From Streptomyces sp. NRRL F-525 (GTDB taxonomy: Bacteria; Actinomycetota; Actinomycetes; Streptomycetales; Streptomycetaceae): a stretch of 64,000 nt of DNA. Shown here one piece after another: positions 3,970-9,407 of the stretch. The DNA is taken from NCBI RefSeq assembly GCF_000716605.1, contig NZ_JNXE01000001.1:496001-560000 (forward strand), in the 5' to 3' direction. Every line of letters begins with the position of its first letter. The first letter of the stretch is position 1. The translations under genes were made by a program, and so were the position numbers. Below the pieces are notes generated by a model. That model did not search any database, had not been told where the DNA came from, and saw only the letters and a program-made list of their open reading frames with translations.

Positions 3970-4629
3970 TCAGACGGCCGGCATCGTACGGATCGCCGCG
4001 ATGTCGAACTGGAGCCGCACCTTCTCGCTCACCATCGCACCACCCTCGGCCAGCCGGGAGTTGTAGGTCAGACCCCACTCGGAACGGTCGATGGTGGTGG
4101 TGCCGTCGAAGCCGACGCGCTCGACGCCGAACGGGTCGGTGACATGGCCGATATAGGTGAGTTCGAGGACGACGGGCCGGGTGACGTCCTTGATGGTGAG
4201 GTCGCCGAGCATGCGGTAGACATCGTTGCCGGCCATTTGCACCGCGGTACTCGCGAACCGCATCCGCGGGAAGGTGGCGGTGTCCAGGAAGTCACGGCCG
4301 ACCAAGTGGGCGTCGCGTTGTTCCACTCCGGTGTCGACTGTGCCGGTGGACACCACGATCTCGGCCTGCGAACGGGCGGGGTTGCGGCCGTCGAAGTAGA
4401 GGCGGCTTTTGTATTCGGCGAAAGACCCGCGCACGGTCGTCACCATCGCGTGCCGGACGGAGAAGCCGATCCGGCTGTGCGCGGGGTCGATCATCCACTC
4501 TCCGGTCAGCGCGGCCAGGGCGGGATCGGGCAGGCCGGAGGGGGTGGAGGCCGGTGGGGCGGCCGGGCGTTTCGGGACGGCGGGGGGTGCCGAGCGGCGG
4601 AGGGGCGCAGCGCGGTTGAACAGGTTCAT
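3970..4629 (-). CDS. YceI family protein
   Basis: 219 aa. The YceI fold is a lipocalin-like barrel that binds isoprenoid-type lipids; bacterial members are linked to isoprenoid handling or stress. The domain starts near residue 43 with GEWMIDPAHSRIGFSVRHAM and continues through FDGRNPARSQ, DFLDTATFPRM, GDLTIKDVTRPV and SEWGLTYNSRLAEGG, all typical of the family. The first 40 residues are a proline/alanine-rich tail with no secretion signal, so the protein is probably cytosolic, as in many actinobacterial members. The upstream region (4630-4813) carries a 7-bp hairpin and is A+T-richer than its surroundings. Confidence 0.9.
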   Translation of the reverse strand: MNLFNRAAPLRRSAPPAVPKRPAAPPASTPSGLPDPALAALTGEWMIDPAHSRIGFSVRHAMVTTVRGSFAEYKSRLYFDGRNPARSQAEIVVSTGTVDTGVEQRDAHLVGRDFLDTATFPRMRFASTAVQMAGNDVYRMLGDLTIKDVTRPVVLELTYIGHVTDPFGVERVGFDGTTTIDRSEWGLTYNSRLAEGGAMVSEKVRLQFDIAAIRTMPAV

Positions 4630-4671
4630 GTGTCACGTAGTTACTGCACGCCTGAAATCGCCGCAAGCCTT

Positions 4672-4692
4672 CGCTGTCCGCCGCCGACAGCG
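4672..4692. other. Small perfect inverted repeat upstream of the YceI gene
   Basis: CGCTGTC and GACAGCG flank a 7-base loop 43 bases upstream of the YceI start codon. It may be an operator or a 5' leader hairpin. Only the dyad itself is seen. Confidence 0.4.
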
Positions 4693-4813
4693 CGAATCGG
4701 CACTGACACGGTTAAATACCGCCACCTCGCGGGCCGTTACACATTTCCCACACATATTCGTCACCCGAAATACGGCTGACGCCAATTCAGTGCGCTGTTC
4801 GGCACCCCACCGT

Positions 4814-5593
4814 TCAGCGCACCGGGAATCCGAAGGAATAACCCTGCTGCTTCAGCCACGGCAGGATCTCGCGCAGCGCGGCCACGGTCTCCGAGCGGTC
4901 GCCGCCGGCGTCGTGGAACAGGATCGTCGGCCCGTTGGGGAGTTCGCTCTTGACGGTGGCGATGATGGCGTCCGTGCCCGGGAGTTCGAAGTCCTTGGAG
5001 TCGACGTTCCAGCCCAGCGGACGCATCCCCTGCGAGGCGGCGAGGTGCCGGCTGTACGGCGTGAAGGCGCCGCCCGGCGCACGGTAGTACAGGGGGCGGA
5101 CACCGCCGGACGCCTTGGTGATCATGCGCGCGGCGTCCAGGATCTCCTGCGACTGATAGGCCTCGGACTTCTTGTCCATCGTCGTGTCGTGCGACACCGT
5201 GTGGTCGCACAGCCGGTGCCCGGCCGCGACGACCGCCTTGACCAGGTCGGGGTGGGCCTCGGCCTCGGGGCCGATCATGCAGAAGGTGGCCTTCACCCCG
5301 TACTGCTTGAGGAGTTGGAGCACCTGCGGGGTCCAGGTCGGGTCCGGTCCGTCGTCGATGGTGATGTTGACGCCGTGGGCGCCCTGGTCGGAGGCGTGCA
5401 CGATCTCCTCCGACACGGTGGCCCGGGCGGGGGCCGAACTGGCCGCGGAGGGGCGCGCGTTGCCCCCGGCGCCCGGCGCGTCGACGACACCGGCCTGCGC
5501 GGTCCACACCGAGGTCGCCGCCGCCACCGCGGTCACCCCGACCGCCGCCGCGAGTACCCGCCCGTACCAACCCCGCCCACCGTGCCGTGCCAT
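4814..5593 (-). CDS. Secreted polysaccharide deacetylase (NodB / CE4 family)
   Basis: 259 aa. Metal-dependent deacetylase acting on N- or O-acetyl groups of an extracellular or cell-wall glycan. An N-terminal hydrophobic segment (about residues 12-32, VLAAAVGVTAVAAATSVWTA) is a signal peptide or anchor. The NodB motifs are all present in order: ITIDDGPD (catalytic base and metal Asp), HTVSHDT (two metal His), YYRAPGG, GWNVDSKDF and ILFHDAGG. Start taken at the ATG at 5593 (MARHGG), which gives the expected signal-peptide length; the open frame runs 13 codons further upstream. A single gene, with 148 bp separating it from the P450 gene upstream. Confidence 0.9.
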   Translation of the reverse strand: MARHGGRGWYGRVLAAAVGVTAVAAATSVWTAQAGVVDAPGAGGNARPSAASSAPARATVSEEIVHASDQGAHGVNITIDDGPDPTWTPQVLQLLKQYGVKATFCMIGPEAEAHPDLVKAVVAAGHRLCDHTVSHDTTMDKKSEAYQSQEILDAARMITKASGGVRPLYYRAPGGAFTPYSRHLAASQGMRPLGWNVDSKDFELPGTDAIIATVKSELPNGPTILFHDAGGDRSETVAALREILPWLKQQGYSFGFPVR

Positions 5594-5741
5594 GTCAGCC
5601 TGCCCTTGTCCTGTTTGATCGACTCCGTGCACTCGTCAGGACGGCGTAAAGGCGGGGGAGGATCCGCCTGTTACGGATCACGGACAGTTTCGCGGGAGTT
5701 CCGAGACGCAGGCTCAACGAGCGGACACCGCAGAGGTTTCG

Positions 5742-6965
5742 CTATCGCGGCGCGAGACGCCCGCGGAAGTCCTCCGGCACCGGCGCGAAGCGGAGCGCCA
5801 TCGTGAGCTTCTCGGGGTGGTCGACGGTCAGCCGGTACCGGGTGCACAACAGGTGGCACAGGCCCATCAGTTGGACGGTCCCGATGTTGGCGCCCACGCA
5901 TTTCTTGGGCGCCCAGCCGAACGGCACGTAGCAGGTGCGGTCCGCCGGGCCGTGCGGCGCGCCCGGCAGGAAACGGTCCGGGTCGAAGACGTCCGGCTGC
6001 TTCCAGACCCGCTCGTCACGGTGGATCAGGTGCGGGCTCAGCAGATACCAATCACCGGGCTCCAGCCGGGTCTTGCCGAAGTCGAAGGGGAACTGGTTGC
6101 GCCGCACCAGCAGCAGCGGCGGGCTCCACAGCCGCAGCACCTCCTTCACGAACCGGTGCGTCACCGGCGCCGCGTGCGTCGGAGCGGCACGGAACTCCAC
6201 CGGGTCCACGGTCGACAGTTCCTCGGTGAGCCGTCGCTGCCACTCGGGGTTGCGGACGAACTCGTACAGCAGACTCGCGGCGGCGGTGCCCGGCGGCCCG
6301 CCGATCGCGGTGAGGACCGTGGTGACGACGTCCAGGGCGCGGTCCATGCCGAGTCGGGGCAGCAGGTCGACGAACGGATCGGCGAGATCCAGTTCGCGCT
6401 TCCGTTTCCCGTGCGCCCGCTGCCGGAGCACCCGGCGCACCACGAGCCCGGACCGCAGCTGTACGACGATGAACCGCAGGTGGTGCCAGAGCCCGGCCGG
6501 CTCGGGCGAGACGAGCCGCAGCAGCTTCATCTCCAGGTCACGGAGGACCAGTTCGGCCTCGCTGGTGGTGAGCCCGGACAGCGCGACCGGCAACATCGAC
6601 CGCAGCGCCACGTCCTGGGTGAGCATGACCAGGTCGACGTCCTCGCCGAGCCGTTCGTCGATGATCCCCTCCATACGGTCGATCAGAGCGCCGTGCTGCT
6701 CCGGCGTGGCCAGCGTGTGCAGTTGGGTCAGCCACGCGGAACGGATCCGGCTCCACCGCACCTCGGGGCTGCGCCGCCGCAGCAGCATGTCGATCAGCCG
6801 GTCGTGCAGGACGAACCGGCGCCAGTTCGTGGCACTGACATGGCGCGCCGCCTCCGGCTCGAACACACCGAGCCGGGTGTCGTCGACCCAGAAGATCCCG
6901 TCCTCGGCGGCGCTGCGCGTGCGGATGGAGTGCAGGAAGTCCTCGGGGTGCTGCGGGGTGGTCAT
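5742..6965 (-). CDS. Cytochrome P450 (second of a RiPP-like cassette)
   Basis: 407 aa. Heme-thiolate oxygenase. The K-helix ExxR motif is KEVLRLW, the PERF-like region PDRFLPG, and the heme loop is FGWAPKKCVGANIG, with the axial Cys but with Ala where most P450s have Gly and Lys for the usual His/Arg. The I-helix region reads TAIGGPPGTAAAS rather than the canonical AGxxT, so oxygen activation may be unusual. Start ATG gives MTTPQHPEDFLHSI. It lies 63 bp downstream of a 28-aa aromatic peptide gene and shares its strand with a second, dissimilar P450 upstream. By context it is proposed to oxidise or cross-link that peptide; this is inference. No ferredoxin gene is adjacent. Confidence 0.9.
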   Translation of the reverse strand: MTTPQHPEDFLHSIRTRSAAEDGIFWVDDTRLGVFEPEAARHVSATNWRRFVLHDRLIDMLLRRRSPEVRWSRIRSAWLTQLHTLATPEQHGALIDRMEGIIDERLGEDVDLVMLTQDVALRSMLPVALSGLTTSEAELVLRDLEMKLLRLVSPEPAGLWHHLRFIVVQLRSGLVVRRVLRQRAHGKRKRELDLADPFVDLLPRLGMDRALDVVTTVLTAIGGPPGTAAASLLYEFVRNPEWQRRLTEELSTVDPVEFRAAPTHAAPVTHRFVKEVLRLWSPPLLLVRRNQFPFDFGKTRLEPGDWYLLSPHLIHRDERVWKQPDVFDPDRFLPGAPHGPADRTCYVPFGWAPKKCVGANIGTVQLMGLCHLLCTRYRLTVDHPEKLTMALRFAPVPEDFRGRLAPR

Positions 6966-6984
6966 GATGAGCGTCCCCTCGTGG

Positions 6985-7021
6985 GGCGCGGGGAGCCGGC
7001 CGCTCGGTGGTTCCCCGCGCC
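6985..7021 (-). terminator. Hairpin between precursor peptide gene and second P450 gene
   Basis: A perfect 9-bp stem (GGCGCGGGG paired with CCCCGCGCC) with a 19-base loop fills most of the 63-bp gap after the peptide stop codon. There is no T-run, so it is more likely an attenuator or 3'-end stabiliser that lets the peptide be made in excess of the downstream P450. It also shares GTTCCCCGCGCC with the dispersed repeats at 41.7 and 48.9 kb. Confidence 0.5.
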
Positions 7022-7028
7022 GGGCCGG

Positions 7029-7115
7029 TCAGATGTGGTGGTACAGGTACCAGAACTGTCCGTACGAGCCTCGGATGTTGAGGACGGACTTCGCCTTGAG
7101 ATACAGGGCGTGCAT
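7029..7115 (-). CDS. 28-aa aromatic-ended peptide, candidate RiPP precursor
   Basis: Too short for standard ORF calling. The ATG at 7115 is preceded by an ideal AAGGAGG site that is itself inside the last codons of the upstream P450 gene, whose TGA is only 6 bases away, so the two are translationally coupled. The 28-residue product has a basic, amphipathic first half (Lys7, Lys9, Arg15) and ends GQFWYLYHHI, with Phe21, Trp22, Tyr23, Tyr25, His26 and His27. Small precursors with aromatic C-termini next to P450 genes are the hallmark of P450-modified RiPPs (biarylitide and atropopeptide/tryptorubin types), in which P450s form C-C, C-N or C-O links between aromatic side chains. That this peptide is a precursor is inference from size, coupling and composition. 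No peptidase or exporter gene is visible nearby. Confidence 0.8.
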   Translation of the reverse strand: MHALYLKAKSVLNIRGSYGQFWYLYHHI

Positions 7116-7121
7116 GTGCGT

Positions 7122-8312
7122 TCACCTCCTTCCGGGACGGTCGGGGCGGGCGCTCAGCACCGCGGTGAAACGCGGTGGAGCGAGCGCCGGGCCCACCTGG
7201 GGGCCGGCGCCGTCATGGGTGACCGACAACCGCCAGTCACGGGTGATCAGTTCGACGAGGTCTTCGAGGAGCCGCATGGTGACGGTCGCCCCGGCGCAGG
7301 TGTGCGGCCCGTACCCGAACGGCAGATACGCCGCGTCCGGCACCGCCCCCGCCCAGCGCTCCGGCACAAACTCGTCCGGGCGCTCCCAGTACCCGGGATG
7401 CCGGTGCACCAGATAGGTGCAGACGGCGAGGAGGTCACGCGGGGTGACCTCCGCCCCGCCGAGCGTCTGCACATGGCTCGGGGTCCGTGCGAACAACCAC
7501 GCCACCGGCCAGAGCCGCAGCGCCTCCCGCACCGTCCAACTCGGCTCCGCCGCCTGGCAGTCGGGGTGCGTGCCGAGCAGGTGGACGGACCATCCGAGCG
7601 CGAAGCCGACCGAGCCGACGGTGGCGAACAGGAACGAGAGATACACCTCGGCGAGATCCTTCGGGTCCGCCCCGGGCTCGCTCTCGTCCACGACGACGTC
7701 GAGCAGGTCGCGTGGATCGCGGGTGGGATCCAACTGCCCCTGCCGGTCGCGTATTTCGGTGTGCAGGAAGTTCAGCGCGCGGCGCCGGAAGAGCAGTCGG
7801 GACGGCGGCGAGTGGCGGTGCCGGGCGCCCGCCAGCACCGCCCGGCGGACGATCTGCCCGACGGTGGCGTGCAGTTGGGGCGGCGCGTCCCGGTGCAGCA
7901 GGACGTCCCGCAGATGGCGCAGGACGAGCAGGTTGCCGGCGTCGGGCCAGACGGCGCTGGGGGCGAGGAGTTCGGAGACCAGGCCCGGCAACTCCGCTCG
8001 CCGGGCGTCCAGATGACGGCGTATCAGGGCGCGGGCCGCACGCCCGATCCGGATCTGCGCCGCACGGGGTCCGAAGTCGCCGTGGCGGGTCTTGTAGAAG
8101 TCGGACGCCTCGACGACGGCCGCGTCCCGGTTGCCGAGCACCGCCCGGGCGGACTCCGGGTCGGCCACGCACATCGTGCCCATGGCCGAACGCCACACGT
8201 CGTGCGTCCCGTCGAACTCCGCGCTCAGCAAGGACAGCGTGTCGCGGGCGCGGCTCTTGCGGGGAGTGCGGGCGGTCTCGCCGTACCCCTGACGCGTCCC
8301 GGACGACTCCAT
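7122..8312 (-). CDS. Cytochrome P450 (first of a RiPP-like cassette)
   Basis: 396 aa. The heme loop FGYGPHTCAGATVT is canonical apart from Ala following Cys; ExxR is REALRLWP and the PERF motif is PERWAG. The I-helix reads LFATVGSVGFALGW and lacks the acid-alcohol pair. The start is the ATG at 8312 with GAAGGAGG five bases upstream; the frame stays open far upstream but that part overlaps the divergent gene and is not P450-like. It is the first gene of the minus-strand cassette P450-peptide-P450, and its last codons contain the ribosome-binding site of the peptide. It shares little visible sequence with the second P450 beyond family motifs. A role in peptide oxidation is inferred from context. 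Confidence 0.9.
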   Translation of the reverse strand: MESSGTRQGYGETARTPRKSRARDTLSLLSAEFDGTHDVWRSAMGTMCVADPESARAVLGNRDAAVVEASDFYKTRHGDFGPRAAQIRIGRAARALIRRHLDARRAELPGLVSELLAPSAVWPDAGNLLVLRHLRDVLLHRDAPPQLHATVGQIVRRAVLAGARHRHSPPSRLLFRRRALNFLHTEIRDRQGQLDPTRDPRDLLDVVVDESEPGADPKDLAEVYLSFLFATVGSVGFALGWSVHLLGTHPDCQAAEPSWTVREALRLWPVAWLFARTPSHVQTLGGAEVTPRDLLAVCTYLVHRHPGYWERPDEFVPERWAGAVPDAAYLPFGYGPHTCAGATVTMRLLEDLVELITRDWRLSVTHDGAGPQVGPALAPPRFTAVLSARPDRPGRR

Positions 8313-8447
8313 GGCGGCCTCCTTCGAGATCGCGGAAGCGCGGCACCCGTGGTGCGGTACGTGGCACGCCCCGACCGATGGGAACAGCCTGCGGACGGTT
8401 CGCCGACGTGTCGCGTGCTGTGCCGGTGAGCGGAACAGCGGGGTGCA

Positions 8448-8489
8448 CCCACATGTGGTGCCGCCATGTGTGGTGCCGCCACATGTGGG
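8448..8489. repeat. 15-bp tandem repeats with CACATGTGG palindromes in the divergent promoter
   Basis: ACATGTGGTGCCGCC (8451-8465) is followed directly by ATGTGTGGTGCCGCC (8466-8480) and a partial third unit ACATGTGGG (8481-8489). The outer units form inverted CCCACATGTGG / CCACATGTGGG. The array lies between the P450-peptide operon and the divergent DUF899 gene, about 136 bp upstream of the first P450 start. It looks like a set of regulator-binding sites; no regulator gene is adjacent. Confidence 0.65.
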
Positions 8490-8561
8490 AAACCGTGGCC
8501 GACGCCCTGCCCACCCCGATGAGTTTCGGCCCCGCCCGGAGTCTGATCCGGTGAGCGCCGT

Positions 8562-8589
8562 AGTACGCCCTACGAAGTACGCCCTACGC
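8562..8589. repeat. 14-bp direct tandem repeat upstream of the DUF899 gene
   Basis: AGTACGCCCTACG is repeated head to tail at 8562 and 8576 (14-bp period), 33-60 bases upstream of the DUF899 start codon, where an activator or repressor site or the promoter would lie. Seen directly; role inferred. Confidence 0.55.
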
Positions 8590-8621
8590 CGCCGCCCGAC
8601 CCGACTCACCACGGAGGACCC

Positions 8622-9407
8622 ATGACGACCACACCCGGCACCGGTAGCAGCAGCGACCTCCCCGGCAAGCCGCCCGTCGTAGACATCGCCACCTGGAACG
8701 CGGCGCGAGACGAACTGCTGCTCCGGGAGAAGGCGCACACCCGGGAGGGAGACGCGATCGCCGCGGCCCGGCGGCGCCTGCCGATGGTCGAGCTCGACGG
8801 GAAGGTGGAGGTCGTCGGCGCCGACGGACCGGTCCCGTTCCTCGACCTGTTCCAGGGGCGCGACGAACTCGTGGTGTACCAGCACATGTGGCACGACCAC
8901 GCACCCCACCAGGGCCAGTGCGAGGGCTGCACCACCACGGCCTGGCACATGAAGGACGCGGTCTATCTCAACGCCCGGGGCGTCTCGTACGCCGTCCTGA
9001 CCACGGGTGCGTGGGACGAGGTCGCTCCCTACGTCGAGTTCATGGGGTACACCGAGCCCTGGTACTCGGTACGCGGCCTGGACGCGCCCATCGGCGGCGG
9101 GATGGGGCACATCCTCGCCTTCCTGCGCGACGGCGACCGCGTGTTCCTCACCTACTCCACCACGGGCCGCGGCAACGAGCCCGTCAACAGCTCCCTCGCC
9201 CTGCTCGACATGACGCCGTACGGCCGCGGCGAGGCCTGGCAGGACAACCCCGAGGGCTACCCGCCCGGCCGTGACGCCTGCTGGTACTGGCGCTCGGACG
9301 CCGACGGGAACGCCACCTGGGGCGGGACCAGCCGTCCCGTCCCGCAGTGGACCCGCCCCGGCGTGACCCCCGTGGAATCCCTGGGCCGCCACGGCGACTG
9401 CCACTGA
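8622..9407 (+). CDS. DUF899 family (thioredoxin-fold-like) protein
   Basis: 261 aa. Cytosolic protein of the DUF899 family, distantly related to thioredoxins and of unknown reaction. Recognisable features: ELLLREKAHTREGDAIAAAR near residue 30, FLDLFQGRDELVVYQHMW near 74, CEGCTTTAWHM near 99 holding the paired Cys of the family, and a C-terminal NPEGYPPGRDACWYWRSD block. SD is GGAGGACCC before the ATG. Its short intergenic region with the P450 cassette is unusually repeat-rich. Whether it works with the P450 system is unknown; members are widespread as single genes, so the neighbourhood may be accidental. Confidence 0.85.
   Translation: MTTTPGTGSSSDLPGKPPVVDIATWNAARDELLLREKAHTREGDAIAAARRRLPMVELDGKVEVVGADGPVPFLDLFQGRDELVVYQHMWHDHAPHQGQCEGCTTTAWHMKDAVYLNARGVSYAVLTTGAWDEVAPYVEFMGYTEPWYSVRGLDAPIGGGMGHILAFLRDGDRVFLTYSTTGRGNEPVNSSLALLDMTPYGRGEAWQDNPEGYPPGRDACWYWRSDADGNATWGGTSRPVPQWTRPGVTPVESLGRHGDCH

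What the first reader, a model, noticed from the sequence alone, without database searches (positions are those of the whole stretch)
5742..8312. P450-peptide-P450 cassette: probable new P450-modified RiPP locus
Two different P450 genes flank a 28-codon gene whose product ends in GQFWYLYHHI. The peptide's ribosome-binding site lies inside the first P450 gene and the gap is 6 bases; a 9-bp hairpin separates it from the second P450. P450-modified RiPPs (biarylitides, atropopeptides) have exactly this precursor size, aromatic core and neighbour. Two P450s for one precursor, and a core with Phe-Trp-Tyr-Leu-Tyr-His-His, would allow more than one cross-link. Both P450s have altered I-helices and one has an altered heme loop (FGWAPKKCVG), fitting unusual radical coupling chemistry.
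Basis: partly seen in the sequence, partly recalled or inferred. Interest (0 to 1): 0.92.

Follow-up and report, generated by a model that had tools for sequence, protein, structure and literature searches.

The report
Hyalucidin-type two-P450 peptide gene cluster
This is a three-gene Streptomyces-type cassette in which two cytochrome P450 enzymes most likely stitch together the aromatic tail of a tiny ribosomal peptide; it is real, but it belongs to the recently described hyalucidin family rather than being a new kind of system.

Summary
On the minus strand lie P450-A (8312-7122), a 28-codon gene (7115-7029, MHALYLKAKSVLNIRGSYGQFWYLYHHI) and P450-B (6965-5742). The peptide matches NCBIfam NF053510.1, 'hyalucidin A family RiPP precursor', at 42.2 bits (cut-off 35). 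Hyalucidin A is cited in print as a bacterial RiPP with a benzofuranoindoline made by tandem P450 catalysis (title in a reference list only). A scan with P450-B alone gave 14 loci; 14 of 14 also carry the peptide. Over 20 distinct loci every peptide ends in WY[LV]YHHI; a full P450-A precedes it in 19, and P450-B follows in 20, its frame broken in one. The last 12 residues equal those of the S. hyaluromycini peptide, probably the namesake producer (inferred from the name). In one draw of 392 same-genus genomes, peptide and P450-B occur in the same 7. It is neither a biarylitide nor an atropopeptide by their published definitions. No compound was examined, and which P450 forms which bond is unknown to me.

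The parts
7122..8312 (-). P450-A (396 aa), first gene of the cassette; heme loop FGYGPHTCAG, I-helix FATVGSVGF
   Evidence: Pfam P450 83.1 bits; full-length orthologue upstream of the peptide in 19 of 20 loci; best solved relative 9ulw_A, 236 bits
7029..7115 (-). Precursor peptide gene, 28 aa; leader part MHALYLKAKSVLNIRG, C-terminal part ending FWYLYHHI (boundary not known)
   Evidence: NCBIfam NF053510.1 Hya_RiPP E 6.4e-11, 42.2 bits, cut-off 35; open frame in 14 of 14 loci found through P450-B
7116..7137 (-). Ribosome-binding site of the peptide gene, overlapping the P450-A stop codon (translational coupling inferred)
   Evidence: Stop-to-start gap 6 nt in 16 and 5 nt in 3 of the 19 loci with a full P450-A
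6966..7028 (-). Intergenic stem-loop between peptide and P450-B; no U-run
   Evidence: 10-bp stem, z -1.5 alone, not the best fold of the bare 63 bases; consensus stem over 20 loci with two-sided changes at 3 pairs
5742..6965 (-). P450-B (407 aa), third gene; heme loop FGWAPKKCVG, I-helix AIGGPPGT
   Evidence: Pfam P450 90.5 bits; in the same 7 of 392 genus genomes as the peptide; motifs kept with small changes in 19 aligned sequences

Best explanation
A three-gene hyalucidin-family RiPP cluster. The peptide is translated, coupled to P450-A, as a 28-residue precursor whose N-terminal part serves as leader. P450-A and P450-B act in turn on the C-terminal WYLYHHI, oxidising aromatic side chains and coupling the radicals instead of inserting oxygen; one outcome is a Trp-Tyr benzofuranoindoline, as in hyalucidin A. 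A host protease outside the cluster trims the leader. Because the last 12 residues equal those of S. hyaluromycini, the product is probably hyalucidin A or a very close congener. Shown here: gene order, open frames, family match, conservation, co-occurrence. Inferred: cross-linking, bond types, order of the two P450s, cleavage site, identity of the product.
For: NF053510.1 match over its cut-off, the only NCBIfam family listed at E up to 1; one match in the own genome. Hyalucidin A title: benzofuranoindoline, tandem P450 catalysis (reference list). 14 of 14 loci found with P450-B carry the peptide. Same 7 of 392 genomes, 8 adjacent places, for peptide and P450-B. P450-A and P450-B diverge in parallel over 19 loci (Mantel r 0.947, 0 of 2000 permutations as high), though shared descent of the strains alone can give this. 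Apart from the P450s, the largest family in a clustering of coding-like ORFs about 7-8 kb either side is in 5 of 20 loci. S. hyaluromycini peptide ends in the same SYGQFWYLYHHI. Best NCBIfam P450 model for both enzymes is ApyO, which joins the Tyr residues of a YLY motif, though far below its cut-off.
Against: The hyalucidin paper is not held: I did not see its precursor, producer, structure or enzymes; the link rests on the NCBIfam name plus the paper's title. Scores of the window (42.2; 39.6 in the six-frame search) and of S. hyaluromycini (38.7) are modest against 56.9 for the best relative. No expression or mass data. No protease or exporter in the cassette. In S. alanosinicus (L026) the peptide stays while P450-A shows only a 39-residue match (among matches over 60 bits) and the P450-B frame is broken.
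Confidence: 0.9

Rival explanations
1. An atropopeptide (tryptorubin-type) cluster with an extra P450, like the lau cluster, in which the first P450 makes the usual bridges and the second adds one more.
For: An atropopeptide cluster with a second, bond-adding P450 exists (LauB1/LauB2; PMC11450843, passages); the leader here has a KS pair.
Against: KSLK and its listed variants are absent (definition, sequence); only Hya_RiPP is listed for the peptide at E up to 1; a single Trp, seventh from the C-terminus, followed by YLYHHI.
Confidence: 0.04
2. Same family, but only one P450 cross-links the peptide; the other performs ordinary oxidation or acts on another substrate. (A sub-case of the best explanation, so the odds overlap.)
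For: Bond and order assignments are untested; the two P450s align significantly only over a C-terminal stretch (32% over 111 residues), so they need not do the same chemistry.
Against: Both lack the acid/Thr I-helix pair (recalled as typical of oxygen-inserting P450s) in the aligned relatives; co-occurrence; the paper's title says tandem P450 catalysis.
Confidence: 0.2
3. The 28-codon ORF is a chance frame or a regulatory leader peptide, and the two P450s make something else.
For: Short ORFs in high-GC DNA arise often; codon-level selection signal is mild (pN/pS 0.59).
Against: Open frame with WY[LV]YHHI in 14 of 14 loci found without using the peptide; curated RiPP model matches it.
Confidence: 0.01

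Closest known systems
Hyalucidin A family (NCBIfam NF053510.1; Yin et al., Angew. Chem. Int. Ed. 2026, e22698, title seen only as a reference in PMC13417212)
   Same: Precursor matches the family model over its cut-off; two P450s with one short precursor, fitting 'tandem P450 catalysis'; Trp and Tyr present for a benzofuranoindoline; last 12 residues identical to the S. hyaluromycini peptide
   Different: Peptide differs from S. hyaluromycini at 4 of 28 positions, all in the first 16; P450-A 74% and P450-B 80% identical; product of this strain not known
Aminopyruvatide P450 ApyO (NF050147.1)
   Same: Best-scoring NCBIfam P450 model for both enzymes; ApyO joins the two Tyr of a YLY motif, also in this core (PMC13192836, abstract and passages)
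   Different: 63.1 and 78.6 bits against a cut-off of 525; ApyA ends in YLYD and its cluster has an MNIO enzyme, here YLYHHI and no third enzyme in the cassette
Atropopeptides (tryptorubin, laurentirubin)
   Same: Short precursor, P450 chemistry on an aromatic core, no dedicated protease in the minimal cluster; a second P450 in the lau cluster (PMC11450843, sections 4 and 8 and passages)
   Different: No KSLK leader motif; no C-terminal xWxxxx hexapeptide (Trp is seventh from the end)
Biarylitides
   Same: P450 cross-linking of aromatic residues, Tyr/His in the core
   Different: Their precursor is a pentapeptide from an 18-bp gene (PMC13417212); here 28 residues
Fungal benzofuranoindoline RiPPs (Nie et al., Nat. 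Chem. Biol. 2025; title seen only as a reference in PMC13060382; not held)
   Same: RiPPs with a benzofuranoindoline, by title
   Different: Fungal; not compared here

Membership tests
Hyalucidin A family RiPP precursor (NF053510.1) | Match to the curated precursor model over its cut-off | tested here: met
   42.2 bits, cut-off 35, positions 1-29 of 29
Hyalucidin A family RiPP precursor (NF053510.1) | More than one P450 beside the precursor (tandem P450 catalysis) | tested here: met
   P450-A and P450-B flank the gene; the feature is taken from the paper's title only
Hyalucidin A family RiPP precursor (NF053510.1) | Benzofuranoindoline in the product | not testable with these tools
   Needs isolation and NMR; Trp22 and Tyr23/Tyr25 are available for it
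Atropopeptides | KSLK (or RSLK, ESLK, KSRK, KPLK, PSLK) leader motif | tested here: not met
   None of these strings in the 28 residues (sequence, definition)
Atropopeptides | Six-residue xWxxxx core at the C-terminus | tested here: not met
   Trp is seventh from the end (definition from a passage of PMC11450843)
Biarylitides | Five-residue precursor from an 18-bp gene | tested here: not met
   28 residues (definition from PMC13417212)
Aminopyruvatides (ApyO) | P450 over the NF050147.1 cut-off | tested here: not met
   63.1 (B) and 78.6 (A) bits against 525

The most novel reading that the evidence does not exclude
The window's cassette installs a second macrocycle (for example Tyr-Tyr in YLY, or Tyr-His) beside the benzofuranoindoline, giving a multi-bridged peptide distinct from hyalucidin A; and the roughly 50%-identical relatives of P450-A and P450-B in Myxococcota and other, mostly metagenome-derived, records belong to uncharted paired-P450 RiPP clusters with other cores.
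Probability: 0.15. Interest if true: 0.4.

Novelty: already known. Interest (0 to 1): 0.25.

Why it matters
P450s that couple aromatic residues make rigid peptides that are hard to synthesise. The 20 loci compared give a natural set of paired P450s with a nearly fixed core WY[LV]YHHI and variable residues in front of it, useful for learning which residues the enzymes need. It is not a new class.

Tried and rejected
Biarylitide and atropopeptide membership: tested against published definitions and rejected (see membership test). A terminator between peptide and P450-B: the scan of 5500-8700 lists two terminator-like sites, neither there; the stem-loop has no U-run, so attenuation or mRNA stabilisation is only a guess.

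Structure models: P450-A pLDDT 77.8, P450-B 86.1; Foldseek against the PDB gave generic P450 matches in the 50 rows shown for each and 9ulw is not among them, so I could not learn what 9ulw is; a paper search for 9ulw together with P450 and peptide found nothing. Two wider literature searches listed no further paper that I recognised as this system; 'hyalucidin' itself is in one held paper. P450-B in plasmids: no match at 1e-60. Phylum draw for P450-B at 1e-60: 1 of 396 genomes, the own; class draw for the precursor: 1 of 394, the own.

Limits of my own steps. The first script saw only 3-kb loci and used a narrow motif, so it missed some peptides; replaced. The script selects the peptide by WY[LV]YHHI, so the statement that 20 of 20 end so is taken from one search, which read on from the tblastn places. 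Six of the 20 loci (the window, G068, G276 locus 2, G392, G439, G458) were found through the peptide, so its presence there is by construction. In one search the P450-B frame picked for L029 was wrong; corrected and used; the intergenic stretch of L029 is wrong for the same reason, and was corrected. The ORF filter is coarse: it caught P450-A in 17 and P450-B in 19 of 20 loci, so other shared genes could be missed too. One search printed P450 matches over 60 bits only. One search scored four candidates per genome. L030 was dropped as a duplicate of L017 (same 170242-bp contig).

Full report
What is there. On the minus strand of 8312-5742 lie, in transcription order, P450-A (396 aa), a 28-codon gene and P450-B (407 aa). 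Both large proteins are P450s by Pfam; the peptide has no Pfam match at E up to 0.01. P450-A and P450-B are different enzymes: the only significant BLAST match between them is 32% identity over 111 C-terminal residues.

What the peptide is. NCBIfam lists one family for it at E up to 1: NF053510.1, 'hyalucidin A family RiPP precursor', 42.2 bits against a cut-off of 35, over the full model. The own genome has one such match. [quoted passage not shown] Chem. Int. Ed. 2026. That paper is not held, so nothing beyond its title is used here.

Relatives. A scan of genome contigs with P450-B gave 14 loci, all titled Streptomyces; 14 of 14 carry the peptide just before P450-B. NF053510 matched 7 of 392 genomes in a genus draw, 6 of 297 in a family draw (two of them, the own and G275, also in the first) and 1 of 394 (the own) in a class draw. 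P450-B is present in 20 (frame broken in S. alanosinicus), a full P450-A in 19, in the same order and orientation. In the genus draw P450-B (E up to 1e-60) was found 8 times, in the same 7 of 392 genomes, each beside one of the 8 peptide places.

Conservation. The 20 peptides end in WY[LV]YHHI, and S10, N13, R15 and Y18 (window numbering) are kept in all 20. Between Y18 and Trp lie three residues (GQF, EYF, GHF, SHF) or, in the four 30-residue forms, five (ending IH, MH or HF). Synonymous versus non-synonymous counts are only mildly below neutral among 16 relatives, so the argument rests on persistence of the motif at 60-70% P450 identity. The P450-A stop codon overlaps the peptide's ribosome-binding site in the 19 loci with a full P450-A, gap 6 nt in 16 and 5 nt in 3. 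A stem-loop between peptide and P450-B is the best single-sequence fold in 16 of 19 loci judged, not in the window's own bare stretch; the consensus fold has it, with two-sided changes at three pairs.

Limits of the cluster. Of seven flanking window genes compared, homologues lie within the held flanks of four other loci and of none of the remaining 15. A coarse clustering of coding-like ORFs about 7-8 kb either side found no family other than the P450s in more than 5 of 20 loci. So the conserved unit appears to be three genes. None of the three is a protease or transporter; leader removal by a host protease is inferred, as proposed for atropopeptides in PMC11450843 (section 4).

Enzymes. P450-A's I-helix reads FA[TVAS][VA]GS (19 sequences) and P450-B's AI[GA]GPPG. 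Against the usual (A/G)Gx(D/E)T motif (recalled) both lack the acid/Thr pair used for oxygen activation, which fits coupling without oxygen insertion but does not prove it. P450-B's FGWAPK[KNR]C loop is kept in the 19 aligned loci and in the separate S. alanosinicus piece. The best solved relative of P450-A is 9ulw_A, whose biology I could not find. For both P450s the best-scoring NCBIfam model is ApyO, an enzyme that joins the Tyr residues of a YLY motif (PMC13192836, abstract and passages), but far under its cut-off. P450-A and P450-B diverge in parallel over 19 loci, as a working pair would, but also as any two genes of related strains may.

Comparison and verdict. Biarylitide and atropopeptide definitions fail. 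The hyalucidin family fits in the two features I could test. S. hyaluromycini (L022), by name the likely source of hyalucidin, has the same last 12 residues SYGQFWYLYHHI. The finding is right as biochemistry and not new as a kind. Open points: which P450 forms which bond, whether there is a second bridge, and what the more distant relatives (Myxococcota and other records, about 50% identity; only the best 120 of 426 and of 310 rows were shown) make.

Noticed in passing
L026 (Streptomyces alanosinicus), about 4315-5832: Hyalucidin-type locus in decay or mis-assembled: peptide frame open, P450-A seen only as a 39-residue match (among matches over 60 bits), P450-B frame broken.
   Followed up: partly
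   Followed up: partly
Upstream of P450-A in L017, L018, L019, L023: A gene that looks like an IclR-type regulator lies upstream in the same orientation in four loci, not among the window's neighbours (name is my reading of the start of one sequence, no family search).
   Followed up: no
Protein hits P0100-P0120 and P0187-P0240: About 50%-identical relatives of the P450s in metagenome records, a few named Myxococcus, Myxococcaceae, Thermoanaerobaculia or Acidobacteriota; one contig length (2829) appears in both lists (P0119, P0227), hinting at paired genes there.
   Followed up: no
window 8622-9407: Divergent DUF899-family gene next to P450-A; found in S. prunicolor (95% identical) but not in the other three loci that share the window's flanks.
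   Followed up: no
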